Assembly (NCBI GenBank): GCA_949283695.1
Contig: CASDTX010000052.1
Coordinates: 27,710-91,709, forward strand
Reading direction: 5' to 3'
Length of the DNA stretch: 64,000 bases
Origin: an uncultured Eubacteriales bacterium
GTDB taxonomy: Bacteria > Bacillota > Clostridia > Lachnospirales > Lachnospiraceae
Both the position numbers and the translations under genes were made by a program. The notes beneath the pieces are model-generated. The model saw only the letters and a list, made by a program, of their open reading frames with translations, made no database searches and was not told the DNA's origin. The first letter of the stretch is position 1; each line of letters begins with the position of its first letter. Positions 2,253 through 49,589 of this stretch are shown in pieces.

Positions 2253-2318
2253 TGCGATTCCTTTCTTCATTCCTTTTTCGGGCTATTATACACTATTTCC
2301 TCTGCTTCGTCCAGAACT

Positions 2319-2400: not shown

Positions 2401-2402
2401 CG

Positions 2403-2783: not shown

Positions 2784-2847
2784 AGTCTCCACTCCTTTTT
2801 CCTACATTATTGGCTTTTTTCGATCTTTTATTCAGGTTGAAACAGGT

Positions 2848-4545: not shown

Positions 4546-4563
4546 AAATATTTCCTCCAAAAT

Positions 4564-5079: not shown

Positions 5080-6083
5080 GGATTTCTCCTTCTGGCGCCC
5101 TTGGTCCGTCCGGCGCTCTTCTTCTCAGATTTCTTCTCGTACTCTTCATAGGCTTTGACGATCCGCTGGACCAGAGGATGCCGGACCACATCTTTGCTGG
5201 TCAGGGTGCAGATACTGATGCCTTCCAGTTCTTTGACGACTTTCACAGCTACATCCAGTCCGGAGACTGCACCTGCGGGCAGGTCTTTCTGCGTGGAGTC
5301 TCCGGTAATGACGACCTTGGAACCGAAGCCGATCCTGGTCAGGAACATCTTCATCTGAGCCGGCGTCGTATTCTGCGCTTCATCGAGGATGATAAATGCA
5401 TTGTCGAGCGTACGGCCTCTCATATAGGCAAGCGGAGCCACTTCGATCAGTCCTTTCTCAGAATTCTTAAGAAAGCTCTCCGCACCCATGATCTGATAGA
5501 GTGCGTCATAAAGGGGCCTCAGATAGGGATCGATCTTACTCTGCAGGTCTCCCGGCAGAAATCCCAGCTTCTCTCCCGCTTCAATCGCGGGCCGGGTCAG
5601 AATGATCCGTCCGACTTCCCCGCGTTTAAACGCCGTGATCGCCATTGCCATGGCGAGATAGGTCTTTCCTGTTCCGGCAGGGCCGAGACCGAAAGTGATC
5701 ATATCCTTCCGGATCGCATCTACATACTTTTTCTGCCCCAGGGTCTTAGGCTTGATCGGTTTCCCCTGCAGTGTATGACAGATCAGTTCCTTATCAATCT
5801 CCACGATTCCTTCTTCCTGATCCTCAAACACAAGAGAAATCGCGTAATCCACGTTCTGCTCTGTGATGGTATTTCCACGCCTGGAGAGCTCCAGAAGCTG
5901 GGTCAGTACCCGGAGCGCCTTCTGCGCCGCCGCGTTCTCACCTACGATCTTCGTGTTCCCGTCCCTGGCGATCAGCGTAATACGGAAGGTTCTCTCCAGT
6001 TTTTTCGCATAAGCATCAAACTGGCCGAACACATTTGCCTCGTGTTCAGCCGGTATCTCAATGATCAGTTCCGACAGACTCAT
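5076..6083 (-). CDS. PhoH family P-loop ATPase
   Basis: This 335-residue cytoplasmic protein has an N-terminal KH-like region and a C-terminal PhoH ATPase domain. The Walker A motif GPAGTGKT is at residues 134-141. The Walker B motif FIILDEAQN is followed by VITGDSTQKDLP, a helicase-like motif. It probably works with YbeY in RNA metabolism, as inferred from their conserved linkage. The ATG at 6083 is preceded by AAGGAAAG and is preferred over a TTG 18 bp earlier. Its start lies inside the end of yqfD (26-bp overlap). Confidence 0.93.
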   Translation of the reverse strand: MSLSELIIEIPAEHEANVFGQFDAYAKKLERTFRITLIARDGNTKIVGENAAAQKALRVLTQLLELSRRGNTITEQNVDYAISLVFEDQEEGIVEIDKELICHTLQGKPIKPKTLGQKKYVDAIRKDMITFGLGPAGTGKTYLAMAMAITAFKRGEVGRIILTRPAIEAGEKLGFLPGDLQSKIDPYLRPLYDALYQIMGAESFLKNSEKGLIEVAPLAYMRGRTLDNAFIILDEAQNTTPAQMKMFLTRIGFGSKVVITGDSTQKDLPAGAVSGLDVAVKVVKELEGISICTLTSKDVVRHPLVQRIVKAYEEYEKKSEKKSAGRTKGARRRNP

Positions 6084-27344: not shown

Positions 27345-28112
27345 ATGCATTATATTGGAATTGATATCGGATCAACAGCAGCAAAAGTTGTTGTAAGGGG
27401 CGACACAGAACTGGAATTTGTGATGCCCACAGGCTGGAGCGGCAAGGAAACCGCAGGCATCATCAAAGAGCGGCTGCTTGAAAGGGGAATTGATGTGGCA
27501 GACAGCGCGTCAAAGGTTGTGGCCACAGGTTACGGCCGTGTAGCCGTTGACTATGCGGACAAAGTAATCACAGAGATCACCTGTCACGGAAGAGGCGGCA
27601 GAGAGATGGGCGGGGAAAACTGTGCGGTCATCGATGTGGGCGGACAGGATACGAAGGTCATCCTTCTCTCCCGGGGGATGGTGCAGGATTTCCTTATGAA
27701 TGACAAATGCTCTGCAGGAACAGGAAAGTTTCTTGAAATCATGGCAAACCGTCTGGGCGTAACGCTCACGGAGCTTTTTGATCTGGCGTCGGCCGGGCAG
27801 GTCCTTCCGATCAGTTCGCTCTGCACCGTATTCGCAGAATCCGAAGTGATCAGCTATATCGGTGAGGGCCGCAGGCGGGAAGATATTGCTGCCGGAGTGG
27901 TAGATTCCGTCGCCGCCAAGGTGGCCCAGCTCGCCTTAAGGAAGGATCTTCCCGAGCAGATCATTCTCACCGGAGGCTTAAGCGGCAGCACCTATTTCGC
28001 CGAATGCCTGAGCGGTAAGGTGGGGAAACCTGTAACCCCAACAGAGTACGGCACGTATGCAGGGGCCCTTGGAGCCGCCCTGCTTGCAAAAGAAAAACTA
28101 TCTCAAAAATAA
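27345..28112 (+). CDS. ATP-dependent activase of the BadF/HgdC family (YjiL type)
   Basis: This 255-residue ASKHA-fold ATPase has YIGIDIGSTAAKVVV (phosphate 1), AVIDVGGQDTKVI (phosphate 2) and a NDKCSAGTGKFLE motif whose Cys, with SSLCTVFAESEV, holds the bridging 4Fe-4S cluster of the homodimer. Such archerases inject low-potential electrons into a partner 2-hydroxyacyl-CoA dehydratase or double-cubane reductase. The partner gene is 14 nt downstream. Confidence 0.93.
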   Translation: MHYIGIDIGSTAAKVVVRGDTELEFVMPTGWSGKETAGIIKERLLERGIDVADSASKVVATGYGRVAVDYADKVITEITCHGRGGREMGGENCAVIDVGGQDTKVILLSRGMVQDFLMNDKCSAGTGKFLEIMANRLGVTLTELFDLASAGQVLPISSLCTVFAESEVISYIGEGRRREDIAAGVVDSVAAKVAQLALRKDLPEQIILTGGLSGSTYFAECLSGKVGKPVTPTEYGTYAGALGAALLAKEKLSQK

Positions 28113-28126
28113 GAAAGGGACGAAGT

Positions 28127-29278
28127 ATGGAATTAATTAAAGATCTACCGGAAGTATTTGAAGAATTTGCAGAGCAGAGAAAGAATTCCTTTCTCGGTGT
28201 GAAGAAACTAAAGGAACAGGGGGTGCCCGTAGTCGGCGCGTACTGTACCTACTTCCCGCAGGAAATCGCCATGGCCATGGGCGCAGCGACGGTCGGCCTG
28301 TGCTCTACGTCAGACGAAACCATTCAGGATGCGGAGAAAGAATTACCCAAAAATCTCTGTCCGCTGATCAAGTCCAGCTACGGATTCGCCCGCACAGATA
28401 AATGTCCGTTCTTCTACTTTTCCGATGTGGTTGTCGGCGAGACAACCTGTGACGGAAAGAAAAAGATGTACGAATACATGGCAGAATTCAAGGATGTATT
28501 CCTCATGGAACTGCCAAACACGCAGGGCGAGGCAGCGTTACAGCTCTGGAGAAGTGAGATGATCCGTTTCCGTGAATATCTGGAAAAGAAGTTTGACGTT
28601 ACGATCACAGAAGACCAGATCCGCGAAGCGATCAAGGTCAATAACGCAGGCAGACGTTCTCTGAAGAAACTGTACGAGGTTATGCAGAATGATCCCGCTC
28701 CGATCACCGGACATGATTTATTCAAGGTGCTTTATGGAAGTACATTTAAGTTCAACCGCAGGGAAATCCCTGCGGAAGTAGACGCTCTTGTTGAGAAAAT
28801 CAATAAGAAATATGCAGAGGGCAAGATGCTCAAGAAAATGCCCCGCATTCTGATCACCGGATGTCCCATCGGCGGTGCCACAGAGAAAGTGATCCGCGCG
28901 GTGGAGGACAATGGCGCTGTGGTTGTCACATACGAAAACTGTTCAGGGGCCAAATCGATTGACAAGCTGGTAGATGAGGATAATCCGGATGTATACGATG
29001 CTCTGGCGAAACGCTACCTGAACATCGGATGTTCCGTCATGACTCCCAACCCCAACAGATTAGAACTCCTGGGACGCCTCATCGACGAATATAAGGTAGA
29101 CGGCGTCGTGGAGATGACGCTCCAGGCATGCCATACCTATAATGTTGAATCTTTCGGCATCCGCAAATTCGTCAACGAAGAAAAACACATCCCTTACATT
29201 AGCGTAGAAACCGATTACTCTCAGGCTGATATCGGCCAGCTGAATACAAGGATCGCGGCGTTTATAGAGATGCTGTAG
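28127..29278 (+). CDS. Double-cubane-cluster anaerobic reductase (2-hydroxyacyl-CoA dehydratase D family, YjiM type)
   Basis: This 383-residue protein is of the HGD-D family. Cysteines at AYCTYFPQE, GLCSTSDE, LCPLIKSSYG, KCPFFYFSD, TTCDGKKKM, ITGCPIGG, ENCSGAK and ACHTYNVE fit a double-cubane [8Fe-9S] cofactor site. A true 2-hydroxyacyl-CoA dehydratase needs two subunits, but only one gene is present with the activase, which is the layout of DCCP reductases. Its natural substrate is unknown. A bidirectional terminator follows. Confidence 0.88.
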   Translation: MELIKDLPEVFEEFAEQRKNSFLGVKKLKEQGVPVVGAYCTYFPQEIAMAMGAATVGLCSTSDETIQDAEKELPKNLCPLIKSSYGFARTDKCPFFYFSDVVVGETTCDGKKKMYEYMAEFKDVFLMELPNTQGEAALQLWRSEMIRFREYLEKKFDVTITEDQIREAIKVNNAGRRSLKKLYEVMQNDPAPITGHDLFKVLYGSTFKFNRREIPAEVDALVEKINKKYAEGKMLKKMPRILITGCPIGGATEKVIRAVEDNGAVVVTYENCSGAKSIDKLVDEDNPDVYDALAKRYLNIGCSVMTPNPNRLELLGRLIDEYKVDGVVEMTLQACHTYNVESFGIRKFVNEEKHIPYISVETDYSQADIGQLNTRIAAFIEML

Positions 29279-31106: not shown

Positions 31107-34100
31107 TTATTTTTTCTCTTTTCCTAATGAAACTACCGCGTTCAGTACGCACAGTACCAGTCCGGCAATTCCAAGCGGGATTCCCATGCCGAAGTAATCT
31201 TCTCCTGCCAGCAGGCAGACCGCCAGACCGCCTCCGAAGATGATCACGCTGCAGATTCCTGACAGGACTGCGCTTAATGTCTTCTTCCGGTCAGTTCCTT
31301 TCACTGCGTCCATCGTGGCAAATGCAGCGCCAAGCAGTGCGATGAGTGCGAATACGACATCAATGGCATATACACCGATCTGCCACAGCGGTGTGATCTG
31401 TACGATCTTGCTGCTGCTTGAGAGTCCGTTCATGGCGTTGGTCCTTGTGATGGCGAAAACAATATTCTTTGCTGCCCTCTGCATCGATGTCACGATCGTG
31501 TCGTTCATATCCGCGTCGCTTAATTTCCACAGTTCTGTATCCGTATTCAGCCAGAGATCTGTTCCTGCCGCCAGTCCGGCTCTCAGGTCTTCATAAGCGA
31601 ACACTTCAAAAGATGCCTGGTCTGTAATTGCGAGGCCTTCAAATCCCCACTCATTACGCAGGGTTTCTGTCATCAGGCCGTAGTGGGCGCCTGTCCATTT
31701 CGAGCCAATGCGGTTCATGCTGACCATAGCTGCATGGGCATCCGCCTCCCGGACCGTGATCTCGAAGGGCTTCAGATACAAGTCTCTTGTACTCTGCTCA
31801 TTTGCGAATATGGACACGCCCATACGGTTCGTCTCCTGGTCATTGAGTGCGAAATGCTTAATATAGACCAGGACGCCCTTCTCTTGCGCGCCGCGGACCA
31901 CTGCCGCGCCCATTTTTCCGGACAGTTGGCTGTCCTCGGAATAATATTCAAAGTTACGTCCACTGTAAGGGGTACGGTGGATGTTCATCGCCGGAGCATA
32001 CCATCCTGTCACTCCAAGGTCAATGCTGTCCTCACCGATACAGCGTCCCATCTCTTCTGCCAGCTCGTCGTTCCAAGTGGCCGCAAGCACGATCTCCGGC
32101 GGGTAGGATGTCCCGTTCTCACCGCCTACCAGGGTGCTGGAGATTCCTGCCGGGCCGTCCTTATCCTGTGTGGACGGAAGCTGGATGGAATCAACGCCCA
32201 TTGTGGCATATCCTCCGACGCGCACCAGATTGTCCAGCTCTTCCACGCTCATCTGGCTGATCAATGTATCCCACATCGGATCATCATAATCCATCTCCAT
32301 CATCATTGCTGCCGTCAGCTCGCCTGTACTCTCATCAACCGTGCCTGTGACCGGCGCTTCTTCTGCCGTATCCTCTACCGTCGGGATCTCCAGCGCTGCC
32401 ACGAACTCCTCCGGTGCTGTCCACGCGCCGTCCGCGTAGGTCGCCGGCCAGGTGCCGCTCCAGTCGCTCCGGCTCAGATAGACATGCTCGGTATCGTAAG
32501 TATTGATATTCACATCCTCATACTGATTCACGATCTCATATCCTGTCTCCTGGGAGACTGCATATGTGGCATTGTCCTGCTCCGCAACCGTAACCTTCGC
32601 CGTCAGATCTGCACTGCCGTCGGCATCCATTCCGTCCGCTGTGGTAAATCCTTTTGCCGTAAGCACGTTATTTACCGCGTCGTGGGCGTCTGTTCCCACT
32701 GTAAAGTAATAATCCCCTGCGTCTAAAATGTACGTTCCCTGCCCGTACGCATCGTAGACTTTCATCACTTCTTTCGGGATCTCTACGGATACTGTTTCAG
32801 AAGCTCCTGCTTCCAAAGTATCTGTCTTTGCATAACCAACCAGCTCGACCGCTGATTTTTCAATCTGATTTTCACGGTCATAATCCGTATACGGAGACTG
32901 CATGTAGATCTCCACCGCGTGCTTGCCGGATGCGTCTCCGGTATTAGTCACTGTAACTTCTGCGGTGTAGTGATCGTCTTCTTCACTGAGGCTGAAATCC
33001 GAGTATGCGAATTCCGTATAAGACAGTCCATATCCAAAGGGATACTGCACGGTTCCGGTATAATTATAGTTGGCTGCGTCTTCATTTCCCAGGACCACAT
33101 CCTCATACCTTGTCTCATAATACCGGTATCCCACATAAATACCCTCGCTGTAGACCATATATGTATTGCCGAACATGACCTGGCTGTTGGTGATGGCATA
33201 GCTTCCGAAGTTCGCCATCGCCGGGGCGCTGAGACTGTCATAAGCGTAAGTATCTGTCAGTCTGCCTGATGGTGATACTGCACCGCTTAAGAGCTCGCCT
33301 ACGGCTTCCGCTCCCGTCTCGCCCAGAGCGCCGATCCAGAGCACGGCGTCAACATCTGTGTTCGTGATCTCTCCCAGCTCCATGGGGTTCTGCGTGTTCA
33401 GAAGAACAACAACATTTTCGAAATTGCGGCACGCAAGATTAATCAGTTCCATCTCATTTTTATCCGGCTCCAGATAGTAAGAACCGGTATCCAGAGGCGT
33501 ACTCTGTAGATCCGAGCTCTCCCCGCCGCTTCGTCCCAGCACGACGATCGCCGCGTCACTGTACTCTTCGAAACTGTCGATCACCTCATCCGTAAACTCT
33601 GAGACCGGAACCTCATTGACACCGAAGACACCCTGGCCGTACGCATCAGGCACAGTCTTGCGGTAGCTGCTTCCTGCCCCTTCGGTATAGAATTCATATA
33701 CCGTATCATTGGTCAGATAACCTGCTTCCTGAATCCCGCTGTACAGGTCGATGGCTGTGGACGTATCCACAGAACCGGCTCCGCCTCCGCCATAGACGGG
33801 ATCCACGCTGTCCTGCCCCAGGATCGTGATCTTCGCCGCATCCGTCAGAGGCAGGGTCCCGTTGTTTTCCAGCAGGACTGCACCTTCCGCTTCGATCTGC
33901 TTTCCGATCTCCTTCAGATGAGCGTTCCTCTCATCCTCACCGGAGTAATCCGAGGTGAAATGCTCTGTCACCTCATCTTCTGCTTCAACAATTTTCTGAT
34001 TCGGCATATTCAGATAAACCGAGATCAGGTTCGCGTAGCGTGATGCCATGAAGTTCGCCAGTATCAGCGCCACTGCTGTGGCTGCCACGACGATCCAGGC

Positions 34101-34139
34101 AAATACTGCACGCAGGATCCGTTTTTTCTTTGCATCCAT
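31107..34139 (-). CDS. Membrane-anchored, circularly permuted GH3 glycoside hydrolase
   Basis: The 1010-residue protein starts with a membrane anchor (residues 8-30). The GH3 C-terminal alpha/beta domain comes first (GAVLLENNGTLPLTDAAKIT, later YPFGYGLSYTEF) with its Fn3 domain. Only then comes the catalytic barrel (PAGISSTL, NIHRTPYSGRNFEYYSEDS, YIKHFALNDQETNRMG). The likely nucleophile is Asp840 in GLAITDQ. Two or three more membrane helices end the protein. It probably acts at the outer membrane face on beta-glucosides or xylosides. An AAGGAGG site precedes the ATG. Confidence 0.9.
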   Translation of the reverse strand: MDAKKKRILRAVFAWIVVAATAVALILANFMASRYANLISVYLNMPNQKIVEAEDEVTEHFTSDYSGEDERNAHLKEIGKQIEAEGAVLLENNGTLPLTDAAKITILGQDSVDPVYGGGGAGSVDTSTAIDLYSGIQEAGYLTNDTVYEFYTEGAGSSYRKTVPDAYGQGVFGVNEVPVSEFTDEVIDSFEEYSDAAIVVLGRSGGESSDLQSTPLDTGSYYLEPDKNEMELINLACRNFENVVVLLNTQNPMELGEITNTDVDAVLWIGALGETGAEAVGELLSGAVSPSGRLTDTYAYDSLSAPAMANFGSYAITNSQVMFGNTYMVYSEGIYVGYRYYETRYEDVVLGNEDAANYNYTGTVQYPFGYGLSYTEFAYSDFSLSEEDDHYTAEVTVTNTGDASGKHAVEIYMQSPYTDYDRENQIEKSAVELVGYAKTDTLEAGASETVSVEIPKEVMKVYDAYGQGTYILDAGDYYFTVGTDAHDAVNNVLTAKGFTTADGMDADGSADLTAKVTVAEQDNATYAVSQETGYEIVNQYEDVNINTYDTEHVYLSRSDWSGTWPATYADGAWTAPEEFVAALEIPTVEDTAEEAPVTGTVDESTGELTAAMMMEMDYDDPMWDTLISQMSVEELDNLVRVGGYATMGVDSIQLPSTQDKDGPAGISSTLVGGENGTSYPPEIVLAATWNDELAEEMGRCIGEDSIDLGVTGWYAPAMNIHRTPYSGRNFEYYSEDSQLSGKMGAAVVRGAQEKGVLVYIKHFALNDQETNRMGVSIFANEQSTRDLYLKPFEITVREADAHAAMVSMNRIGSKWTGAHYGLMTETLRNEWGFEGLAITDQASFEVFAYEDLRAGLAAGTDLWLNTDTELWKLSDADMNDTIVTSMQRAAKNIVFAITRTNAMNGLSSSSKIVQITPLWQIGVYAIDVVFALIALLGAAFATMDAVKGTDRKKTLSAVLSGICSVIIFGGGLAVCLLAGEDYFGMGIPLGIAGLVLCVLNAVVSLGKEKK

Positions 34140-38293: not shown

Positions 38294-41005
38294 TTATCCT
38301 CTTTTCAGCATGGCATCTAACTCATCCAACATCGCTTCTGCCTGACTTCCGCCCATTCGGACTGCGATATCCCGCATCGGGATATTCCGCATCCGTTCCA
38401 GAATCGCCTTTGCCTTCGGTTCTGCCAGCAGCTCAGCAACCGTATTCCTGCTGGTCATTACCTGGTGCAGAGGCTTCGTAGTCCGGTAAGTATATGTATA
38501 GTGTCCTGCCTCCAAAACCTGCTCCTCTTCCTCGCTGAAAGGAAGCTTCAGCAAAGCAATGCACCCAAATGGCACCGTGGCCTCCACATGCAGATGCTCC
38601 GCATCTATTATGCGCCAGTGAACCTTCCACAGTCCGGCTGCACTCCGGTAGCTTGAGTCCAGCGTCTTAAGTTCCCATACGGGTGTCGGTTCTACCCGCG
38701 CTTTCACAAATCCAGGCTGCAATGGCTGCAGTCCGGCCAAATGCCGAAACATCCACTCTGCCACAGACCCATAGGCATAATGATTCAGACTATTCATTCC
38801 CGTGGAACTGAAGTGTCCATTCTCATCTAAACTGTTCCAGCGTTCCCAGATCGTAGTGGCTCCCATCTTCACTTCCCTCAGCCACCCTGGATATTCTTCA
38901 TTCAGTAAGAGTACTTCCGACAGATCCGACATGCCATGTTCCGAAAGCATATTGCAGAGAAGCGGAGTTCCTACAAATCCCGTGTCAAGATGATTGTGAT
39001 TGGAAGCCAGCTTTTTCCGAAGGTCAGCGGCAGTCTTTTCCGGATTCGCCAGACCGTGGCGAAGCGTCAGAAGAAGTCCTGTCTGAGTCGGTACAGCACA
39101 GCGCCCGCTCGGTGTAAAATACTCTTCCTTGATCCGCTTTTCCAGTTCTTCTGCCAAATTTCCATATTTGAAAGCTTCTTCTGAATATCCAAGCTCCTTC
39201 GCCGCCCGGGACAGAATCTGCGCACTATAGCGATAATAAATGTCTGCGATAAATCCCTCATCTGTAGCTCCCCTGCAGTTTCCTGGAGCGGAATTTATCT
39301 GATCCAGCGCCAGCCAGTCCCCGAAATGGAAGGCGTCCCGCCAGCCGCAGTCCTCACCGTCCACCTCCGATATATAATCCACCCAGGCTTTCATGGACGC
39401 AAACTGCTCTTCCAGAATCGTCGGATCCCCTGTAAATTGATACAAGATCCACGGAATGATCGTCGCGGCATCTCCCCACACAGACGAAGTGCCCTGTATT
39501 CCGCAGCTTGGCACCACATTTGGCACCTGTCCGTTTCTCTCTCGCTGTTCTGTTTCGATATCATGCAGATACTTGCGGTAGAAGGCATAGGCATCGGCAA
39601 GGAAACACGCCGTCGGTGCAAATACCTGGGCATCTCCTGTCCATCCCATTCGTTCATCCCTCTGCGGGCAGTCCGTGGGCACATCAATAAAGTTGTCCAG
39701 CCTGCTCCATTCGATATTGGAAATCAGCCGATTCACCAGATCATTTCCCGTCTCCAGGTAGCCGGTCCGTTCCATCTGGCTCGTATAACAAAGGGCAGTA
39801 AAGTCTTCGGGATCCGGATTTTCGATTCCGTCCACCTTCACATAACGGCCCCCGAAGAAGGTGAACCGAGGCCGCAGCGTAACACAAGTTCCATCAGAAA
39901 CATACACAAACTCTGCTTTGGCTGTGCGCAGATTTCCCCGGTAAAAACATCCGTCCTGAAGCTGCTCCCCAAACTGCAGCCGAAGTGTTGTTCCTTCCGG
40001 AATCTGTACCCTGTAGAGGAAACTGCCGGCCACATTCTGTCCCAGATCAAATACATTTTCCCCTGCCGGCGTATGGATAAGTACCGGCTTTCGCGTCATA
40101 TGAGCAATGACTGGGGGACTGTATCGTTCTGTCAGAGGAGCTTTGAGAAAGGTCTCTTGAGAACAAAGCATAGCCGGAACCGCGTCAGTTTCCGGCAGGG
40201 TAGCATCCCATTTTTCCCCGTCGTAAATATTGGAAAAGAGAATGCGGCTTTGTCTTACCGTCCAGCTCTCATCTGTGCCGACTGCGGATTCTGTTCCATC
40301 CTCATAGGTAAAACGCACTTCTGCAATCAGCTGAAACGTATCTCCAAAAAATCCTTTTGTTGATTTTTCGAATCCAAAACGCCCCTTGTACCATCCGTTT
40401 CCCAATGTGACTGCAAGGACGCCGCCGCTCCAGACTTCCTCTGTAATATCATAAGTTTGATACTGCAGCCAGCCATTATAATTATTACAGCCGGGGGCAA
40501 GATATTCCTCCCCGATCTTCCGCCCGTTTATTGCGGCTTCATACAGCCCCAGCCCGCAGATGTAGAGTCTTGCAGACTTCAGCTTTTTCGCAGGCTTCAG
40601 TTCCTTCTCAAAAACAGGATGACGTTCTTCCCCGCTTTTCTGATCCGGACAAGACAGACAGGTAATCCATCTGCCGGCCCACGGCTCCTCCATTTTCCCA
40701 GTCTCAAACCACTGGACAGGGCTTGTTGCTTCTTCTCCTGCGTCCGATCTCACTGTCACCGTCCAATAATATCTGGTACGCGGCAGCAGTGAAATGTCCG
40801 GTGTGCAGCCCAGCCCGGAGAGGCTGCTGTCAAATCCACTGTCCCACAACAGTTCTGACAGATCTTCTGCATCAGAGACAATTACCCGGCTTTCTGCCGC
40901 TCGTTTCCCTCTGCTGTCCTCCACACACCATGTAAACACAGGCTTTCGCATATGATACCCAAGAGGATGACGTATATGATTTGTGTAACAATTTGTTATT
41001 TTCAT
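38294..41005 (-). CDS. GH78 alpha-L-rhamnosidase with C-terminal helical module
   Basis: The 903-residue enzyme has no signal peptide. N-terminal beta domains (PVFTWCVEDSRG, GYEAxINGR-like LGLYEAAINGRKIGEEYLAP) precede the (alpha/alpha)6 barrel, which has the signature VPTDCPQRDERMGWTGDAQV carrying the catalytic acidic residues. It would remove alpha-L-rhamnose from glycosides in the cytoplasm. The last 54 residues, after the usual C-terminal beta domain, are a helical module (TVAELLAEPKAKAILERM) shared with two other hydrolases of this operon. Last gene of the operon; 49 nt after the GH3 gene. Confidence 0.92.
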   Translation of the reverse strand: MKITNCYTNHIRHPLGYHMRKPVFTWCVEDSRGKRAAESRVIVSDAEDLSELLWDSGFDSSLSGLGCTPDISLLPRTRYYWTVTVRSDAGEEATSPVQWFETGKMEEPWAGRWITCLSCPDQKSGEERHPVFEKELKPAKKLKSARLYICGLGLYEAAINGRKIGEEYLAPGCNNYNGWLQYQTYDITEEVWSGGVLAVTLGNGWYKGRFGFEKSTKGFFGDTFQLIAEVRFTYEDGTESAVGTDESWTVRQSRILFSNIYDGEKWDATLPETDAVPAMLCSQETFLKAPLTERYSPPVIAHMTRKPVLIHTPAGENVFDLGQNVAGSFLYRVQIPEGTTLRLQFGEQLQDGCFYRGNLRTAKAEFVYVSDGTCVTLRPRFTFFGGRYVKVDGIENPDPEDFTALCYTSQMERTGYLETGNDLVNRLISNIEWSRLDNFIDVPTDCPQRDERMGWTGDAQVFAPTACFLADAYAFYRKYLHDIETEQRERNGQVPNVVPSCGIQGTSSVWGDAATIIPWILYQFTGDPTILEEQFASMKAWVDYISEVDGEDCGWRDAFHFGDWLALDQINSAPGNCRGATDEGFIADIYYRYSAQILSRAAKELGYSEEAFKYGNLAEELEKRIKEEYFTPSGRCAVPTQTGLLLTLRHGLANPEKTAADLRKKLASNHNHLDTGFVGTPLLCNMLSEHGMSDLSEVLLLNEEYPGWLREVKMGATTIWERWNSLDENGHFSSTGMNSLNHYAYGSVAEWMFRHLAGLQPLQPGFVKARVEPTPVWELKTLDSSYRSAAGLWKVHWRIIDAEHLHVEATVPFGCIALLKLPFSEEEEQVLEAGHYTYTYRTTKPLHQVMTSRNTVAELLAEPKAKAILERMRNIPMRDIAVRMGGSQAEAMLDELDAMLKRG

Positions 41006-41054
41006 AATTTGCCCCGCTTTCCCCGCGCTTTTTCTTTCTTTTCGTATCTTTCTT

Positions 41055-43397
41055 TTATTCTTTGCCGCTCATTATCTCTGATTTTCTGTCATTCATTCTC
41101 TCAAACAGGGCCAGCCATTCTGTTTCCGGTATATCAGGCGCCATGCGCATCACTGTCTGCAGTGGTTCGGCCATCAGTCCCATGTGCTTCGGCATCAATT
41201 CCTTATACGGCATGGTTTCCTGTACTTTATCCATCCCCATGCGGCGGATGACCGCATTTACACCGGGCATCAATTGGTCCAGAAAAGCCTTTCCTTCCGG
41301 GTGCTCCAGCGCATCACAGACCGGAGTCATAATATTGTACTGTCTTCCTTTGGGAAGATACTCATCCTCTGCCTTCACTGGCCGTCGCAGCACAATGTCT
41401 TCTGCTGACAGTCCAATCTGTATCTCATAATCACCTCCTGCTACGCGCCAGCTGCGGGCCTCCTGATCCCAATAAGAAAATGCTCTTCTGTCAAGCTGAA
41501 ATGCTACGCATCTCCTCTCGCCGGGTCTCAGCTCCACTTTCTCAAACGCGCGCAGTTCCCGTACCGGGCGGCGAATTCCTGTATCTCCCAGAGAAGTTCC
41601 TACATAGAGCTGCACCAGCGCTTTCCCGGCGCGGTCCCCTGTGTTCTCCACGCAGACCGAAACAGTCAATTCTTCTCCAGCTTTATAGATACCTTCGCTG
41701 ACCGTGAGATCGCTGTAGGCGAAGGAAGTATAACTCAGTCCATGCCCGAATGGGAACAGCACCTCCATATTCTTAGAGACATAATAACGATAGCCCACGA
41801 ATACGCCCTCTTGATAGTCCACCCGGTCTCCCTCACCCGGCCAGAACAGATAGCTGGGATTATCTTCCAGACGCAGAGGAAAGCTCTCGGCCAGATGGCC
41901 GGAAGGGTTTACCGCTCCTGTCAGTACATCCCATATTGCTTCGCTTACTGCCTCCCCTCCAAGGTACACCTCCAGAATCGCGGCCGGCTGCTCTGCCCAT
42001 GGCATCTCTATAGCTCCGCCGTTCTCCAGTACGACCACTGTCCTCGGCTGGACTTTGCAGACTGCTTCAATCAGTTCATTCTGACACTCCGGCAGTTTCA
42101 TAGTCCAGCGGTCAAAGCCTTCTGATTCCATCACAGACGGTACCCCTGCAAAAATCACTGCAATCTCTGCATCTTTGGCAGCGGCGACTGCCTGTTTCAG
42201 TTTCGCGGGATCTCTTTGTACGTCAGATGCCGTTCCGTCATAATAGCGGACGTTCCCCAGGTCTGCTGTCACCTCCGGCAGAGACGGCACCCGCCAGGCA
42301 TTGACTCTGGAAGACCCGCTGCCCTGATATCGGGGCTCTTTCGCAAAAGGACCGATCATGGCGATATTTGCCTCTGATGACAGGGGAAGAATCGCATCCT
42401 TGTTTTTCAGAAGAACCATAGACTCCGCTGCCGCCCGTCTGGCCAGCGCATGGGCCTTCTGAAGCCGTTCGTCCTTCCGCGATTTCTCCTTCTCCTCCTG
42501 CTGGTTCCCGTTCTCTGCATATGCCTGTGTGCAGCGGAGAATGAGGCCCAATAATTCCTCACAGCGGGCATCCAGTTCCTCTTCCGCCAGCCGTTCTTCC
42601 CGCACTGCCTCCACCAGCTCAGAATCATGTGCCGCATCTCCCGGCATAGTCAGGGCGCAGCCGCCCTTTACGGCTGCTGTCCGGTTATGGACAGCAGCCC
42701 AGTCACTGACCACAGCCCCGTCAAACCCCCATTCCTCTCTCAAAAGCTTCTTCAGATACCGCTCGTTCTCCGTGGCATATACGCCGTCAATCTTGTTGTA
42801 GGCGGCCATGACAGACCAGGGCTTTGCCTCCTTCACCACTTGTTCAAAGGCGGCCGCATAAATTTCCCGCATGGTGCGCTCCTCCATATGAGAGCTCTCT
42901 GTGCGCCTGCGGCATTCCTGATTGTTAGCCACGAAGTGCTTCAGGCACACTCCGATCCCTTTCTTCTGGGCTGCCTTCACGAAAGCCGCCCCCAGAGTCC
43001 CCGATACAAGCGGATCTTCACTGTAATACTCAAAATTCCGTCCGCAGAGAGGGCTTCTTTTTATGTTGATTCCTGGGCCAAGGATGATCTGTACGTCTTC
43101 TGCCTTCCACTGTTCGGCCATACTTTCTGCGATTTCTGCTGCCAGATCTTTATCAAAGCTGCTGCCGACAGTACAGGCAGCGGGAAAACAGGTGGCAGGC
43201 AGACTCTCATTTGTTCCCATAAAATCCTGGCCTTCCATCTGCTTGCGCAGTCCATGGGGGCCATCTGTCAGCTCAATGGACGGAATCCCCAATCGTTCCA
43301 CTGCCTTGGTACGAAACGTACTTTCTCCGGAACAGAAAGCCGCCTTCTCTTCCAGTGTCATCTGCTTTATGATTTCTTTTGTATTCTTCTGTTCCAT
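41055..43397 (-). CDS. GH3 beta-glucosidase-type hydrolase, canonical order, with C-terminal helical module
   Basis: The 780-residue protein is cytoplasmic (no signal peptide) and has the normal domain order. The barrel (residues 1-300) contains ELTDGPHGLR, NIKRSPLCGRNFEYYSEDPL, CLKHFVANNQE and nucleophile Asp232 in AVVSDWAA. Then come the alpha/beta domain (ESMVLLKNKDAILPL), the Fn3 domain (FPFGHGLSYTSFAYSD), and a last 95-residue helical tail starting CDALEHPEGKAFLDQLMPG. It cleaves beta-linked glucose, xylose or similar; the specificity is not readable. Confidence 0.92.
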   Translation of the reverse strand: MEQKNTKEIIKQMTLEEKAAFCSGESTFRTKAVERLGIPSIELTDGPHGLRKQMEGQDFMGTNESLPATCFPAACTVGSSFDKDLAAEIAESMAEQWKAEDVQIILGPGINIKRSPLCGRNFEYYSEDPLVSGTLGAAFVKAAQKKGIGVCLKHFVANNQECRRRTESSHMEERTMREIYAAAFEQVVKEAKPWSVMAAYNKIDGVYATENERYLKKLLREEWGFDGAVVSDWAAVHNRTAAVKGGCALTMPGDAAHDSELVEAVREERLAEEELDARCEELLGLILRCTQAYAENGNQQEEKEKSRKDERLQKAHALARRAAAESMVLLKNKDAILPLSSEANIAMIGPFAKEPRYQGSGSSRVNAWRVPSLPEVTADLGNVRYYDGTASDVQRDPAKLKQAVAAAKDAEIAVIFAGVPSVMESEGFDRWTMKLPECQNELIEAVCKVQPRTVVVLENGGAIEMPWAEQPAAILEVYLGGEAVSEAIWDVLTGAVNPSGHLAESFPLRLEDNPSYLFWPGEGDRVDYQEGVFVGYRYYVSKNMEVLFPFGHGLSYTSFAYSDLTVSEGIYKAGEELTVSVCVENTGDRAGKALVQLYVGTSLGDTGIRRPVRELRAFEKVELRPGERRCVAFQLDRRAFSYWDQEARSWRVAGGDYEIQIGLSAEDIVLRRPVKAEDEYLPKGRQYNIMTPVCDALEHPEGKAFLDQLMPGVNAVIRRMGMDKVQETMPYKELMPKHMGLMAEPLQTVMRMAPDIPETEWLALFERMNDRKSEIMSGKE

Positions 43398-43447
43398 ACA
43401 CTGCCTGCCTTTCTTCTGTCCGCCCCCCTGTTCTGATACTGGCCCGG

Positions 43448-46400
43448 TTACTCATAATCTTCTGTTCTCCACTCATCTTTCCACTCGATCCGTACCTTCT
43501 CTCCATCGAACTGAAGCGGCAGCCACACATAATCCGCTGCGGAGGTATCGGCACTTTCCAGCATGGGGCTTTCTACTACCAGACTGCGTTCCTCCGGGGC
43601 TGCCTGATATTTCTCCGGTTCATACCTGGACGCAATGACACGCTCGATCGCGTCTGCCCGCTTTGCATCCACAGGATATCCCGGTACCCAGCGGTCCGCT
43701 ATGGCAATATACAGATCCTTTTTGCCAGGTACCTGGAATACCTGGGATATCTGGCTGTTAAAGGAGGCATTTGTAATGTCATCTACATGCGGATTGTCTG
43801 TGCTTACAAATGGTTCCGTCCATGCATCCGATACGGCAGAATCGCTCTTGTTTGGAATGTACCCTGTCATTCCGGAGGTCAGCATATATTTTTTCCCGCC
43901 CCGTTCAAAGAGTGTGATGCCTTCTCTGCAAAACGGCGGATGCAGATTTTCATATTGTTTTGATACTTTCTTCTCCACCGCGAGATAATCGTCCGTCAGC
44001 TCCATTCCCACAACCCCTGCATGGTCTGCATCCATAAACAGGTAGCATTTTCCGCTTTCTTTATCCTTGACCAGATCGAAGTCTCCCACCTTCATGCCGA
44101 AGGGGCGGTAGCCTTCCTTTACGACTCGGTAGGGCCCCATAAATGCATCTGCTTCCAGGATCAGGAAACAAGCCTCCTCGCCGGACTGCTTGATCCAGCA
44201 TACATATTTCCCGGCCGCGTCACATTTGACGATATGCGGGCGGTCCACATGTTTTTCCGGATACAGCCCTGCTTTCGGATTCTCGAGATCAGGCCGGATG
44301 ATCAGCCCTAAGTCTTCCCAGTTATACAGATCCGCAGATCGGTAAGCGCGGATTCCCCATGTCCAGACCGGGCATTCCCCATCTGTGCGGTCCTTGTTTT
44401 CTCCGTACCAGTAGTAGACCCCGTCTTCGTACAGTACCGCTCCCGCGTGGGCCTGAATCCGCTTCCCCTCGGTATCCCGCCATACCTGCCCCGGATGGAA
44501 GGCAGTCAGTCTCACGCCTGGAATGAGGTTCGCTGCTTCCGCTGTCAAAGGCTGATCCTCTGTATAACAGCCTTCGTCTTCTCCATACAGTTCCAGTGCC
44601 TGAAGTGCCTGTTCCAGTTCTTGCGCTGTTTTCTCCGCTATCGCCCCTTTAGAAAAGGCAATGAGCTGACTGAGGGAAAATCCCAGGATTGCTGACTGTC
44701 CTTCTATTTTGGAACGCATTCCCGGCAGATAGCGGTCGAACAATTGTCGGCTCTCCTCATGTGCGAAAATCCGGCTCAAGCGGGACTCTGTGGAAAGCGC
44801 AATCCTCCGGCGAGGCTCTTCTTTCTTTGGCTTTTCGAATTGCTGCAGGGCTGCATTCAGCTGTCTGATCTGCTCCGGAGGAACTGTGTCACCTGCCTGC
44901 TTTAACAGACTTTCCAGCGACATCCCCGCCATCATCTTCTGCAGAGCTGCGTTCTGGTTCGCTGCCTTTGCAACATCTCCCCGGCTTGCGGTCACTTTTT
45001 CCATCATTCTGGTGATGATGGCTCCGGTTCCGGGATGGGCTGTCAGCTCTCCCATGGTATCACGGATAGAATAATATCCTTCTTTGAAATCCTCTTTGTC
45101 AAACCAGTTTGCGACATCTCCTTTCCTGCCGAAACAATAGGATGGATCCGGCTGAGCCGTCTTCTGAATGACAATCTGATCTCTGCATTCGCCGGCATCT
45201 GCGGTGATCTCATGGCTTCCCGTCAGCGGGATTTCAAACCGGAACACCTGATTTCCCGTTTTTGTCTCTGCTGCTGTTCCGTCTACGCTCAATGTGACAG
45301 AAGGCTGGTTGGAGTACACTTTGATTTCTGTTCTGTCCTCTGCCCGATTTTGATATCTGCTTCCGCAGATGTGGACAAAAGGTTCTTTGCTCCAGTATGC
45401 TTTGTAAAGATAGAATGCGTCTTTCTTGATCTTCCGGTCAAAGGTCACAAGCCCTTTCTGGTTGATTCCATTCTTTCCTCCCTCATCGCGTCCGTCTGCC
45501 GCAAAGTCAAACATGTTCCAGACATGAGTTGCCCACAGGTAAGGGCGCTCCTTTATCATCTCTAGGATATGTTCATGGTACACACACTGATAGCTCTCCG
45601 TATAGTCTCCTTTCTCCGGTGCGCTGCTCTGAAACTGGGGATTGGCGTCTGCCCCGTATTCGGAAAAGCCGATTGCCCGATCAGGATACATCGTATGATA
45701 GTTATCAAAGAATTCTTCATTTTGCTGAAGCTCCCCCAGATACCACCCATAATACAGGTTGTAGCTGTTGAGATCGGGAATGGTAAGGAGCTCATTCTCA
45801 GGCTCCAGCATAAACACATTGGCCATGGCGGTAGGCCGGGTCTTGTCCAGACGATGACACAGGTCATTGAGCAGACGGTGATTCTCAAGCAGATCCTCCG
45901 GATCCTCCACCGGACTGGCTGTAATCTCGTTCGAAAGTCCCCAGCACACAATGGAAGGATGATTATAATTCTGAAGGATCAGTTCTTTCATCTGAGACAG
46001 TGTGTTGTCCCTTCCCTGCGGCATATGCTGCGTGATATAAGGGATCTCCGCCCATACGATCATCCCAGTCTCATCGCACAAGTCATAGAATTCTTGCGCA
46101 TGCTGATAATGAGCCAGCCGGATCGTATTGGCGCCCATCTCCCGGATGATCGCCAGATCCTCCTGGTGTTCCGCGATTGTAAGGGCATTTCCCAAGCCTT
46201 CTCTGTCCTGATGGCGGCTAACGCCTCGGAGGGGATAGGAGATTCCATTCAGCAGAAAGCCTTTCTCCGGATCCATTTGAAACTTTCGGCAGCCGAAACG
46301 TGTCTCAACCCGGTCCCCACTGTCCAGAACAGCCTCTGCCATATAGAGATAGGGATTTTCCACACCATTCCATAAATGTACCCCCGGGATGGATATGGTT

Positions 46401-47089
46401 ACCGTGGCAGAGCCGTCTTTTATAACCGCCGTCTCTTCTCCGATGGTTTCCTGGCAATCATGTTCTTCACTTACTTCCATCAAATCTGTCCCTGCTTTTT
46501 TCCCTCGTACACCCTGCTCTTTGATTCCTATGGTTACAGTATGCCCTTCTGCACCTTCTGCATAGACTGTAACCTCTGTCCTGGCGTTCTCCAGCGAATC
46601 ATCCAGTTCCGGTGTCACCCGGATTCCACCAGACCCAAAATATCCCAGCGCAAAGTGCGCTTCGGGAACAATAATCAGCCGTACTTCCCGGTAGAGTCCT
46701 CCGTAGAAGGTAAAGTCTGCTTTCTGAGGATAAACCTTTGTATTCTCACTGTTATCCACTGTCACCGAGAGACTGTCCCTGCCCGTCAGGAAGTCGGTCA
46801 GGTCCGCCCGGAAGGTAGAGTAACCTCCTTCATGACATGCGATCTTCTGCCCATTCAGATACACAGCCGCACTCATTGCTGCACCGGTGATCTCCAGCCA
46901 TACACGGCTCCCATCTGTTGGACGCGGAATCTCCAGGTCATGGGTATAGCTACAGGTGCCTCTATAGTAATCATTTCCGCCGTCCTGCCCGTCCACATTG
47001 TTCCAGGTATGGGGCAGGGAAACTGTTTCCACATTGCCTTTTGTCTTCTCAAAGAGCCAGTTCTCTTTCAAAGGTATTACCTTACGCAT
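43448..47089 (-). CDS. GH2-GH43 fusion glycoside hydrolase with two helical modules as linker
   Basis: The 1213-residue protein has a GH2 part (residues 1-650): jelly-roll DYYRGTCSYTHDL, GVSRHQDREGLG, acid/base Glu388 in CWGLSNEIT and nucleophile Glu477 in GFSEYGAD. Two helical modules follow (about 671-752 and 764-835). Then comes a GH43-type five-bladed propeller (855-1190) opening IQAHAGAVLYEDGVYYWYGE, a pattern found in GH43 galactanase-like subgroups. It would pair beta-galactosidase-type and arabinosidase/galactanase-type activities in one cytoplasmic chain. AAAGGAG sets the start at 47089. It overlaps the upstream GH3 gene by 8 bp. Confidence 0.9.
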   Translation of the reverse strand: MRKVIPLKENWLFEKTKGNVETVSLPHTWNNVDGQDGGNDYYRGTCSYTHDLEIPRPTDGSRVWLEITGAAMSAAVYLNGQKIACHEGGYSTFRADLTDFLTGRDSLSVTVDNSENTKVYPQKADFTFYGGLYREVRLIIVPEAHFALGYFGSGGIRVTPELDDSLENARTEVTVYAEGAEGHTVTIGIKEQGVRGKKAGTDLMEVSEEHDCQETIGEETAVIKDGSATVTISIPGVHLWNGVENPYLYMAEAVLDSGDRVETRFGCRKFQMDPEKGFLLNGISYPLRGVSRHQDREGLGNALTIAEHQEDLAIIREMGANTIRLAHYQHAQEFYDLCDETGMIVWAEIPYITQHMPQGRDNTLSQMKELILQNYNHPSIVCWGLSNEITASPVEDPEDLLENHRLLNDLCHRLDKTRPTAMANVFMLEPENELLTIPDLNSYNLYYGWYLGELQQNEEFFDNYHTMYPDRAIGFSEYGADANPQFQSSAPEKGDYTESYQCVYHEHILEMIKERPYLWATHVWNMFDFAADGRDEGGKNGINQKGLVTFDRKIKKDAFYLYKAYWSKEPFVHICGSRYQNRAEDRTEIKVYSNQPSVTLSVDGTAAETKTGNQVFRFEIPLTGSHEITADAGECRDQIVIQKTAQPDPSYCFGRKGDVANWFDKEDFKEGYYSIRDTMGELTAHPGTGAIITRMMEKVTASRGDVAKAANQNAALQKMMAGMSLESLLKQAGDTVPPEQIRQLNAALQQFEKPKKEEPRRRIALSTESRLSRIFAHEESRQLFDRYLPGMRSKIEGQSAILGFSLSQLIAFSKGAIAEKTAQELEQALQALELYGEDEGCYTEDQPLTAEAANLIPGVRLTAFHPGQVWRDTEGKRIQAHAGAVLYEDGVYYWYGENKDRTDGECPVWTWGIRAYRSADLYNWEDLGLIIRPDLENPKAGLYPEKHVDRPHIVKCDAAGKYVCWIKQSGEEACFLILEADAFMGPYRVVKEGYRPFGMKVGDFDLVKDKESGKCYLFMDADHAGVVGMELTDDYLAVEKKVSKQYENLHPPFCREGITLFERGGKKYMLTSGMTGYIPNKSDSAVSDAWTEPFVSTDNPHVDDITNASFNSQISQVFQVPGKKDLYIAIADRWVPGYPVDAKRADAIERVIASRYEPEKYQAAPEERSLVVESPMLESADTSAADYVWLPLQFDGEKVRIEWKDEWRTEDYE

Positions 47090-49589
47090 TATCTCCACTC
47101 CTTTTATTTCTATCTTGCTGAACGGACTCCGTCCGTGCCTTTAACATAATCCGCAGCACTCTGGCGGCACTCTTTCTCACGCACGTCTCCGATATCTTTC
47201 CTTCGTGCATCGCGTTTCTGATCTCTTCCGCCTCCTCTGCTGCCCCCGGCATAACGAGATCATTTCCTGCGGGAGCACATTGCACAGCATCTGCCGCCGA
47301 GGCATTACAGCTGCCCCAGTCCGTCATTACCAGACCCTGATAGCCCCACTCGCACCGCAGGATATTCGTAAGCAGATCATGACTGTTGGGAGTATAGACA
47401 TGGTTGATCATATTATATGAGCTCATCACGCCATGCGGCTGTGATTCCTTTACAGCATACTCAAATCCTCGCAGATGAATCTCCCGCAGAGCCCGCTCAC
47501 TTACGTTGCTGCTGCTGTGATTGCGGTTATCTTCGGCATCATTGCAGGCAAAGTGCTTGATCACAGTACCAAGTCCTTCTGTCGACTGGACACCCCGGGT
47601 GACAGCAGCCGCACACAGTCCGGACAGGAGAGGATCTTCACTGTAATATTCAAAATTCCTGCCGCCCAGGGGATTCCGGTGAATATTCATTCCCGGCGCA
47701 AGCCATAGTGTAATGCCGAACGCCTCCATCTCTTTTGCCGTCCCTTTCCCGATCTCCTCCAGCAGTTCCAGATTCCAGGACTGAGCCAGCAGCATCTCCA
47801 CCGGCCAGGCAGTGGCATAGCGGTACACAATCTTTCCGCCCGCCGGAATCATCCGGGCAGCATAGGCTTTCATCATCCCCCAGTTGTAACGTTCTGGGAT
47901 GACGGCGACGGCAAATTTCCCGCCGCCCATATATTTCACTTTATTGGCAATATTGATTCCCGCCGGTCCGTCAGACATCACCACATTCCGAATGCCATCT
48001 GCAAGAAGAGCCGTTGTAGTCTTCCCTCCTGCTCCAGATATCTCAAGGGTGCCCTCCGGCGGATTCTGGAGATCACCGCCCCGAAGGAACTCCGCCCATT
48101 TGTCCGGGCCGAGCCTGTCTAAAATCGCTTTCTCTTCCTCTGTTTCGATGAATTCTGGTTCCCGATAGTCCACTGTCTGTGCCGCAACTGCTGTATCGTC
48201 CAGCAGAAGAACCGGGATATCCCAGCTGCTTTCTGCGCCGTTTGATCCTGCCTTCAGCGGAGCAAATGTCTCCAACCGGTCCACCGGCGTACACTGATTG
48301 GCGCACTGCTGTGTGACGATATCCCCCTCAAGCCTGATAACAGCTGCGGGCTCTGTATTTCGGGAAGAATTACCAACTCTTATGATGTAATCGCCCTGCT
48401 CCAGTATCCAGGCGGCTGTCTCTTCAGCATAAGAAGCCATTCGGCTTACATCGAATTGAATTGAAACCACTTCGCTTTCTCCCGGTGCAAGGAGCTTCGT
48501 TTTTGCAAATCCTGCCAGACTCTGGTATTCCTTAGCGAGTTTCCCCTGAGGCGCAGATGCGTACACCTGCACAACCTCTCTGCCCGCATACTGATTTCCC
48601 GTGTTCGTCACACAGACAGAGAGCCTGATTTCGTCTCCTTCCAGAGCTGCTTCCAGGCACTTCATCTGAAAGGTTGTATAAGACAAACCATATCCGAACG
48701 GATACCGGACCTCCTTCTGAAAGCTGTCATAATAGCGGTAACCCACATAGATACCCTCATGGTAATATTCATTATCCAGATCTCCGTTCATATAGGAAAA
48801 ACCTTCCCCAAAAGGAACATCCTCATAATGCTGCATTACCGTGGAAGCAAGTTTGCCGGAGAAGTTCACCTTGCCGGAGAGAAGATTCGCCAGAGCATTT
48901 CCCCCTTCTTCTCCGCCCTGCACATAGTTTACCACTGCATCGATACCGGGAATTTCTTCCACAAAACTCATATCCACCCCACCTCCGATATTGATAACCA
49001 CGATGGTATGTTTATAAGCCGCGCCTACTTTCGTGAGATGATCCCGCTCTATATCAGTAAGAAGATAATCCCCCGGTTCAAGTCTCCGGTCGTTTCCTTC
49101 TCCCGCCTGACGCATCAAAACGTAGACACAAGACTCCGTATCGCTCGTTTCAATATCCTCGTCGGCAATCATCCGGCCGCTGGGATAACGGTACACATAA
49201 GAATGGGCTTTCGGGATGATTTCCATAGGATTGGTCATTCCTTTGATCTGTTCTTCTACCATAGCCACATATGCCTGATAGGTTTCTTCATACTCCCGGT
49301 CATAATCGTCAAGCCAGGCTCTGGTGGTAATTTCATAGCCCGCATTTCGCAGGCCTTCCTCTATAGTCACTGAATAACGCTCTTCAACACTCCCGCTTCC
49401 AAGACCGCCTTTAACTGTTTTCCTGGCACCCATCCCATAGAGTGCCAGTTTGCCGGGACAGATTGGAAGTGCTCCGTCATTTTTCAACAGAACGATGGAC
49501 TCCTCCGCCGCCTGGCGTGCAAGCGTCCGGTTGGCAAGTTCTAATTCCGTTTCTTTCTCCCCGAGATTTCCATATAATTTTTCTTCCAC
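47082..49589 (-). CDS. Circularly permuted GH3 glycoside hydrolase (cytoplasmic)
   Basis: The 835-residue protein begins with the GH3 C-terminal alpha/beta domain (ARQAAEESIVLLKNDGALPI) and Fn3 domain (YPFGYGLSYTTFQMKCLE). The barrel comes second (SDGPAGINI, NIHRNPLGGRNFEYYSEDPL, VIKHFACNDAEDNRNH), with nucleophile Asp757 in GLVMTDWG. There is no signal peptide or membrane helix. Start is GTG with AAAGGG upstream. It is second in the operon, 6 nt after the GPH symporter gene. The substrate is probably a beta-glucoside or beta-xyloside. Confidence 0.9.
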   Translation of the reverse strand: MEEKLYGNLGEKETELELANRTLARQAAEESIVLLKNDGALPICPGKLALYGMGARKTVKGGLGSGSVEERYSVTIEEGLRNAGYEITTRAWLDDYDREYEETYQAYVAMVEEQIKGMTNPMEIIPKAHSYVYRYPSGRMIADEDIETSDTESCVYVLMRQAGEGNDRRLEPGDYLLTDIERDHLTKVGAAYKHTIVVINIGGGVDMSFVEEIPGIDAVVNYVQGGEEGGNALANLLSGKVNFSGKLASTVMQHYEDVPFGEGFSYMNGDLDNEYYHEGIYVGYRYYDSFQKEVRYPFGYGLSYTTFQMKCLEAALEGDEIRLSVCVTNTGNQYAGREVVQVYASAPQGKLAKEYQSLAGFAKTKLLAPGESEVVSIQFDVSRMASYAEETAAWILEQGDYIIRVGNSSRNTEPAAVIRLEGDIVTQQCANQCTPVDRLETFAPLKAGSNGAESSWDIPVLLLDDTAVAAQTVDYREPEFIETEEEKAILDRLGPDKWAEFLRGGDLQNPPEGTLEISGAGGKTTTALLADGIRNVVMSDGPAGINIANKVKYMGGGKFAVAVIPERYNWGMMKAYAARMIPAGGKIVYRYATAWPVEMLLAQSWNLELLEEIGKGTAKEMEAFGITLWLAPGMNIHRNPLGGRNFEYYSEDPLLSGLCAAAVTRGVQSTEGLGTVIKHFACNDAEDNRNHSSSNVSERALREIHLRGFEYAVKESQPHGVMSSYNMINHVYTPNSHDLLTNILRCEWGYQGLVMTDWGSCNASAADAVQCAPAGNDLVMPGAAEEAEEIRNAMHEGKISETCVRKSAARVLRIMLKARTESVQQDRNKRSGDNA

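What the first reader, a model, noticed from the sequence alone, without database searches (positions are those of the whole stretch)
38294..45079. A short helical module shared by three unrelated glycoside hydrolases of one operon
Seen: the GH78 C-terminus (38294-38458), the GH3 C-terminus (41055-41342) and two stretches in the GH2-GH43 linker (44834-45079, 44585-44800) share one pattern. It is a short polar lead, then LxxLxxHPxxxxxLxxxMPG-like residues (TVAELLAEPKAKAILERM; CDALEHPEGKAFLDQLMPG; DTMGELTAHPGTGAIITRM; SRLSRIFAHEESRQLFDRYL), often followed by a GxSLxxL helix and a LxxxLxxL helix. The host enzymes have unrelated folds, so the module must have been added separately. Known: I do not recognise a named domain. 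Inference: it could hold the cytoplasmic enzymes together or bind a common partner or glycan, a kind of intracellular glycosidase complex.
Basis: partly seen in the sequence, partly recalled or inferred. Interest (0 to 1): 0.75.

Follow-up and report, generated by a model that had tools for sequence, protein, structure and literature searches.

The report
Shuffled helical domain on cytoplasmic glycosidases
Three different sugar-cleaving enzymes in one gut-bacterial operon carry the same small helical domain, which recurs on many other intracellular enzymes and matches the unresolved tail of drug-reactivating gut beta-glucuronidases.

Summary
In detail: one ~55-90 residue helical module sits at the C-termini of the window's GH78 and GH3 enzymes and twice in the GH2-GH43 linker. 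The four window segments alone do not prove it. Tail profiles gathered separately for each host do: 5 of 6 pairs score 94-98%, and models of both linker copies match the C-terminal domain of two solved GH3 enzymes, CtBglB and PSTG1. The linker has two copies because two genes fused: in 17 of 80 loci GH2 ends in one module and the next gene, GH43, begins with another. The module is appended: related GH2 and GH78 enzymes lack it. It also occurs on GH13, esterases, SDRs, a STAS-kinase and as proteins of 70-90 residues. By sequence it is the mobile C-terminal domain of R. hominis 3 beta-glucuronidase (7kgz); removing such a domain lowers activity (PMC9377255, PMC8748916, passages). I found no Pfam family for it; the fold resembles DUF1858. 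Mechanism is inferred: a tethered cover over the host's active-site mouth is slightly favoured over a docking module holding enzymes together.

The parts
43448..47098 (-). GH2-GH43 fusion protein, 1216 aa
   Evidence: Pfam Glyco_hydro_2_N, _2, _2_C and Glyco_hydro_43
44837..45073 (-). module a, C-terminal module of the GH2 half
   Evidence: profile hit (seed contains it) and AlphaFold model, pLDDT 81.1, pTM 0.65; same place after the GH2 core as 7kgz residues 653-731
44594..44797 (-). module b, N-terminal module of the GH43 half
   Evidence: same module at the N-terminus of separate GH43 genes; AlphaFold model from 15 b-type rows, pLDDT 86.6, pTM 0.74
44798..44836 (-). short charged linker between modules a and b, where the two ancestral genes are joined
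   Evidence: unfused neighbours have a GH2 stop and GH43 start here
41055..43397 (-). GH3 enzyme, 780 aa, ordinary domain order
   Evidence: Pfam Glyco_hydro_3, Glyco_hydro_3_C, Fn3-like
41094..41339 (-). module at the GH3 C-terminus, elongated form
   Evidence: profile hit; tails of 12 related GH3 align with the GH2 and GH78 tails
38294..41005 (-). GH78 enzyme, 903 aa
   Evidence: Pfam Bac_rhamnosid family of domains
38300..38458 (-). module at the GH78 C-terminus, shortened form lacking the middle segment
   Evidence: weak on its own (E 0.02-0.03); longer copies in the closest GH78 relatives at the same place

Best explanation
Identity (shown): a mobile accessory domain of about 65-90 residues, all helical, that evolution has attached to either end of many apparently cytoplasmic enzymes of glycoside and small-molecule catabolism; the GH2 copy is the C-terminal domain of the FMN-binding type of beta-glucuronidase. 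Mechanism (inferred): a tethered helical cover on a flexible linker that folds back beside the mouth of its host's active site and helps hold the aglycone or leaving-group side of the substrate. This raises turnover of bulky glycosides without being needed for the chemistry. The two linker copies come from fusion of a GH2 gene ending in one module to a GH43 gene beginning with another.
For: Homology. Fold. Appended, not intrinsic. Fusion: 17 of 80 loci have GH2-module then module-GH43 as separate genes, all 17 downstream genes matching the window's GH43 part; in 14 of 17 the GH43 frame continues the GH2 frame after stop codon(s). Cover role: a stop after residue 644 of R. hominis 2 GUS lowered specific activity on mycophenolate glucuronide eightfold, and AlphaFold models there put the domain outside the active site as a possible 'gate' (PMC9377255, passages). 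The C-terminal domain of R. hominis 3 GUS (7KGZ) is needed for efficient triclosan-glucuronide processing and these domains are mobile in crystals (PMC8748916, passages). PSTG, taken to be the PSTG1 of 8j9f, hydrolyses sesaminol triglucoside (PMC3622683, passages). The best conserved columns are mostly hydrophobic or proline, with no invariant polar residue in 133 sequences.
Against: The gate role rests on deletions in two GH2 enzymes only; I saw nothing measured for GH3, GH78, GH43, GH13, esterase or SDR hosts. A cover must fit its host's active site, yet the module sits at either terminus of unrelated folds, and it exists as separate 70-90 residue proteins. I could not read coordinates, so its position on CtBglB or PSTG1 is unknown to me. 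It is also on CtBglB, a cellodextrin enzyme from recall, so bulky aglycones are not the whole story.
Confidence: 0.45

Rival explanations
1. The module is a docking domain: modules pair with each other, or with a common partner, to assemble subunits or different enzymes of one pathway in the cytoplasm.
For: GH2-GH43 fusion puts two modules side by side, and the unfused genes are adjacent. Among 60 module hits (E up to about 0.1) in 18 genus genomes, 16 pairs lie within 10 kb where 0.71 are expected at random. Module-bearing GH78 have another module gene within 1.4-10 kb in 16 of 31 cases against 19 of 71 for GH78 without it, p = 0.023. Separate module proteins follow SDR genes (L135, L200), and one SDR has a module at each end. 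PSTG is a tetramer (PMC3622683).
Against: Related genomes make the 16 of 31 test non-independent, and glycosidase genes cluster anyway. 49 of 57 class-level genomes with a hit have one detected match, although the profile misses some. In the GH2 crystals these domains are mobile and unresolved, so they form no ordered contact there (PMC8748916, passages). No direct interaction data.
Confidence: 0.33
2. The module binds a shared small molecule or cofactor (for example FMN or an aromatic aglycone) and hands it to the host enzyme.
For: Hosts beyond glycosidases are small-molecule enzymes: SDRs and esterases. The GH2 relatives bind FMN (PMC8748916, passages).
Against: No conserved polar or aromatic site apart from the leading Y/F. 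FMN is seen in the R. hominis 3 structure, about 30 A from the active site, although such C-terminal domains are unresolved (PMC8748916, passages), so FMN need not sit in the module.
Confidence: 0.12
3. The four segments are unrelated amphipathic helices that look alike by composition.
For: The four window sequences alone are not significantly related; the GH3-GH43 profile pair scores only 14%.
Against: Separately gathered profiles, shuffles and two models agree.
Confidence: 0.03

Closest known systems
C-terminal domain (CTD) of FMN-binding gut beta-glucuronidases: 7kgz (R. hominis 3); 6mvf, 6mvg, 6mvh (FMN-binding by recall); also 8ges, 8get (named beta-galactosidase)
   Same: Same module by sequence: 7kgz residues 653-731 E 3.5e-17, 6mvf 5e-9, 6mvg 1.1e-6, 8ges 3.8e-6, 6mvh 4.2e-6, 8get 1.3e-5
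   Different: Described, in the passages I read, only for beta-glucuronidases, as a mobile domain of ~150 residues; those passages do not link it to other enzyme families
C-terminal domain of GH3 beta-glucosidases CtBglB (7ms2, 674-750) and PSTG1 (8j9f, 9lql, 675-753)
   Different: Attached to GH3 only; my searches found no paper that names it
DUF1858 (PF08984; structures 2k53, 2k5e)
   Different: Profile-profile score only 58-71% for the whole module set and mostly over the first helix; CxxC in 1 of 133 module sequences; no Pfam match
Dockerin-cohesin modules of cellulosomes (recalled)
   Same: Small helical accessory module carried by unrelated glycoside hydrolases
   Different: Hosts look cytoplasmic here; calcium loops and cohesin-like partners were not looked for

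Membership tests
CTD of FMN-binding GUS | sequence match to the CTD of solved FMN-binding GUS | tested here: met
   A3 profile: 8 distinct PDB sequences above noise, all named beta-glucuronidase, beta-galactosidase or beta-glucosidase; next hit E 0.16
CTD of FMN-binding GUS | position directly after the GH2 core | tested here: met
   module a follows the GH2 core in the window and in 18 of the best 30 genus GH2 loci, window included
CTD of FMN-binding GUS | host binds FMN | not tested
   FMN-site residues of the GH2 core were not compared
GH3 C-terminal domain of CtBglB/PSTG1 | same fold | tested here: met
DUF1858 (PF08984) | Pfam match | tested here: not met
   no DUF1858 hit for 30 module sequences at E up to 5 nor for 5 small proteins at E up to 1
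DUF1858 (PF08984) | CxxC motif | tested here: not met
   1 of 133 non-redundant module sequences has any CxxC
DUF1858-like fold | fold similarity | tested here: inconclusive
ordinary part of GH2 or GH78 | present in all members | tested here: not met
   4 GH2 at 53% identity end one residue after query position 665 without it; 13 GH78 of 28-37% identity lack it

The most novel reading that the evidence does not exclude
A portable docking domain that organises cytoplasmic glycoside catabolism in gut Clostridia and relatives: modules on GH2, GH3, GH13, GH43, GH78, esterases and SDRs associate with each other and with stand-alone module proteins, giving an intracellular counterpart of the cellulosome.
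Probability: 0.18. Interest if true: 0.88.

Novelty: new variant of a known kind. Interest (0 to 1): 0.62.

Why it matters
It turns a mobile, unresolved tail of the gut enzymes that reactivate mycophenolate and triclosan glucuronides into one instance of a widespread domain with solved structures on other hosts (7ms2, 8j9f, 9lql). That makes the open question of what the tail does testable on well-behaved enzymes. It also gives annotators a domain for which I found no Pfam model and that marks clade-specific, apparently cytoplasmic versions of at least five glycoside hydrolase families.

Tried and rejected
Window sequences alone: not significant; told above. DUF1858 membership: rejected on the Pfam and CxxC tests; a fold relation stays open. 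GlyA1, a permuted rumen GH3 with an unresolved C-terminal domain whose removal lowers activity 2-18.4 fold (PMC5104943, passages): that domain is modelled there as a beta-sandwich, so I do not count it as this module. The hits other than the window, L003, L005 and L012 look like chance. The weak hits to model positions 34-60 in ~820 aa frames turned out, where looked at, to be GH3 enzymes with a longer variant tail. A model of a and b together was dropped because the aligner laid b rows onto the a half. First count of module neighbours (16 of 29 against 13 of 53, p 0.008) had left out the 20 lowest GH78 rows and two weak module hits; the full count (16 of 31 against 19 of 71, p 0.023) is the one to use; the own genome is left out of both. 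(GH2 tails): five pairs 93.5-97.6%, GH3-GH43 14%, best of 20 shuffles 0.2-34.7%; one search repeats it with GH2 tails found by the GH2 catalytic domain. Rows dropped: L340 (contig end) and L301 (tail of 24 aa) as too short, GH78 under 40% and GH3 under 47% identity, and the window rows (15 and 12 tails used); 13 of 30 GH2 loci (window; 11 with tails of 0-10 aa; L435 at 29% identity), 17 used. One GH43 row (L218) was cut at an inner methionine and lacks its first residues. In one search the shuffle control of GH2-GH78 reached 99.7%; searches show this is over 5-17 columns (1 of 20 and 3 of 200 shuffles). In one search the groups had been found with a shared profile, so it is not the fair test; there 27 of 28 pairs exceeded 90%, GH13-esterase 42%. 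In one search, 1 of 135 hosts shows a hydrophobic N-terminus, but that frame (L222) has no methionine in its first 80 residues, and no matched control set was run. Literature searches for the domain; the library lacks most subscription papers, and the primary FMN-GUS paper (10.1016/j.jmb.2019.01.013, recalled) is not held.

Full report
WHAT IS THERE. The window holds a minus-strand run of glycosidase genes: a permuted GH3 (47082-49589), a GH2-GH43 fusion (43448-47098), a GH3 (41055-43397) and a GH78 (38294-41005); domains by Pfam. The four segments named in the finding are at the stated places. None matches a Pfam family (three chance hits at E 0.05-0.22 for two of the segments, none for the other two).

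IS IT ONE MODULE? From the window alone the case is weak: a GH2-only profile of 39 sequences (window and its nearest relative left out) finds its own copy at E 6e-40 but nothing significant elsewhere, and single tails reach 45%, 8% and 7%. A seed of the four segments and three finds was then searched in 58 genus genomes; broader seeds in 295 genomes of the order (55 with a hit at E 0.01), 391 of the class (57 at 0.001) and 398 of the phylum (11 at 0.001), own genome included each time and draws overlapping. To remove circularity I collected GH78, GH3 and GH2 tails by their catalytic domains, with or without the module, and GH43 starts by gene position in loci noticed through the module. Five of six profile pairs score 94.1-97.6% with E from 1e-7 to 5e-12 over 64-86 columns; GH3-GH43 scores 14%. 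For the five pairs, no shuffle among 150-200 with at least 30 aligned columns passes 1.1%; for GH2-GH78 1 of 20 and 3 of 200 shuffles print 99.7% over 5-17 columns, an hhalign end effect as I read it. An earlier run with another GH2 set agrees.

APPENDED, NOT INTRINSIC. Of the best 30 genus loci found by the GH2 catalytic domain 18 have the module; four GH2 at 53% identity end one residue after query position 665, about ten residues before it. Of 30 GH78 loci 16 have it: every one of at least 41% identity except one cut by a contig end, and none of the 13 at 28-37%. Of 30 GH3 loci 25 have it. The window's own genes are among these counts.

WHY TWO COPIES IN THE LINKER. In 17 of the 80 named loci (the best 80 of 229 relatives) the GH2 gene ends with a module and the next gene, a separate GH43, begins with one. 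All 17 downstream genes match the window's GH43 part; of the six given to Pfam, five match Glyco_hydro_43 and one, cut by its contig, does not. In 14 of 17 the GH43 frame continues the GH2 frame after stop codon(s), and in 16 of 17 its start lies within about a dozen bases of the GH2 stop. The window and its nearest relative (Candidatus Eisenbergiella merdavium, L215, 88% in the module) have the two joined.

OTHER HOSTS. GH13 with the module in front (L137, L139, L182, L121; Alpha-amylase domain), BD-FAE-type esterases (L065, L115, L118, L122; L209), SDRs with the module in front (L212) or at both ends (L206), a STAS-APH protein (L107/L214), a GH3 fragment with the module in front of GH3_C (L211), and frames of 70-91 residues that are little else. 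Two of the latter follow an SDR gene next to a GcvT-like gene (L135, L200). Non-redundant copies at 90% in the loci held: GH2 82 (fusion copies included), GH3 38, GH78 28, GH43 9, GH13 6, esterases 6, SDR 3, STAS-APH 1, small frames 16 (some are gene fragments), unassigned 2.

LOCATION. Of 135 distinct hosts with a complete 5' end, one shows a strong hydrophobic N-terminus and that frame has no methionine in its first 80 residues. The window's GH3 with a hydrophobic N-terminus (31107-34139) gave no module hit.

WHAT IS PUBLISHED. Passages of PMC8748916: the structure of R. hominis 3 GUS is 7KGZ, a dimer; its C-terminal domain is important for triclosan glucuronide; C-terminal domains of this class 'remained mobile and unresolved'. 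[quoted passage not shown] hominis 2 GUS lowers specific activity eightfold. Passages of PMC3622683: PSTG hydrolyses sesaminol triglucoside and is a tetramer. None of the passages read connects these domains.

HOW IT MAY WORK. Shown here: one module, many hosts, appended, a solved fold on GH3. Published: an activity loss on deletion in GH2. Inferred: a tethered cover near the active site (0.45), or a docking domain (0.33), or ligand binding (0.12). For docking: 16 pairs of module hits within 10 kb against 0.71 expected, and 16 of 31 module GH78 against 19 of 71 others with another module gene within 1.4-10 kb (p 0.023, genomes related). Against docking as the general function: 49 of 57 class genomes with a hit have one match. 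The best conserved columns are the leading Y/F, P14, M43, M47 and L72, with no invariant polar residue in 133 sequences.

NOVELTY. The domain is in the PDB and part of it is in print, but I found no Pfam or NCBIfam model for it, and my searches found no paper that unites the copies. I rate it a new variant of a known kind: an unnamed, widely shuffled accessory domain.

Noticed in passing
window 47082-49589 and 31107-34139: Two GH3 genes with permuted order (GH3_C and Fn3-like before GH3_N), as described for GlyA1 (PMC5104943, passages); the second has a hydrophobic N-terminus. Neither gave a module hit.
   Followed up: partly
L135 (G053) 1937-5284 and L200 (G412) 1633-5098: A repeated gene order: protein without Pfam match, GcvT-like protein, SDR, then a stand-alone module protein in a 74-81 aa frame.
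   Followed up: partly
L198 4698-4913 and L203 4712-4921: Stand-alone module proteins lie near a two-gene flavoprotein pair (DHODB-type electron transfer subunit and Fer4_20/Pyr_redox protein; for L203, by eye for L198) in two genomes.
   Followed up: no
L107 172-1698, L214 3761-5287 (same gene): A STAS plus APH-type kinase protein with the module at its C-terminus, far from any glycosidase role.
   Followed up: no
L310, L311 and L313-L324 (GH3 genes of the genus): A GH3 subgroup with a tail of about 148-164 aa in which the module follows an extra conserved stretch (TNRMPSYYSG or a near form, then GELTVNDAICQMYYAKS).
   Followed up: no
G000:C25:359575-360646 (own genome, L194): A GH3 frame with an in-frame TGA before a module remnant of 51 aa; possibly a decayed gene.
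   Followed up: no
window 27345-29278: Two genes that look like a 2-hydroxyacyl-CoA dehydratase activator and subunit (recalled from sequence, not searched).
   Followed up: no
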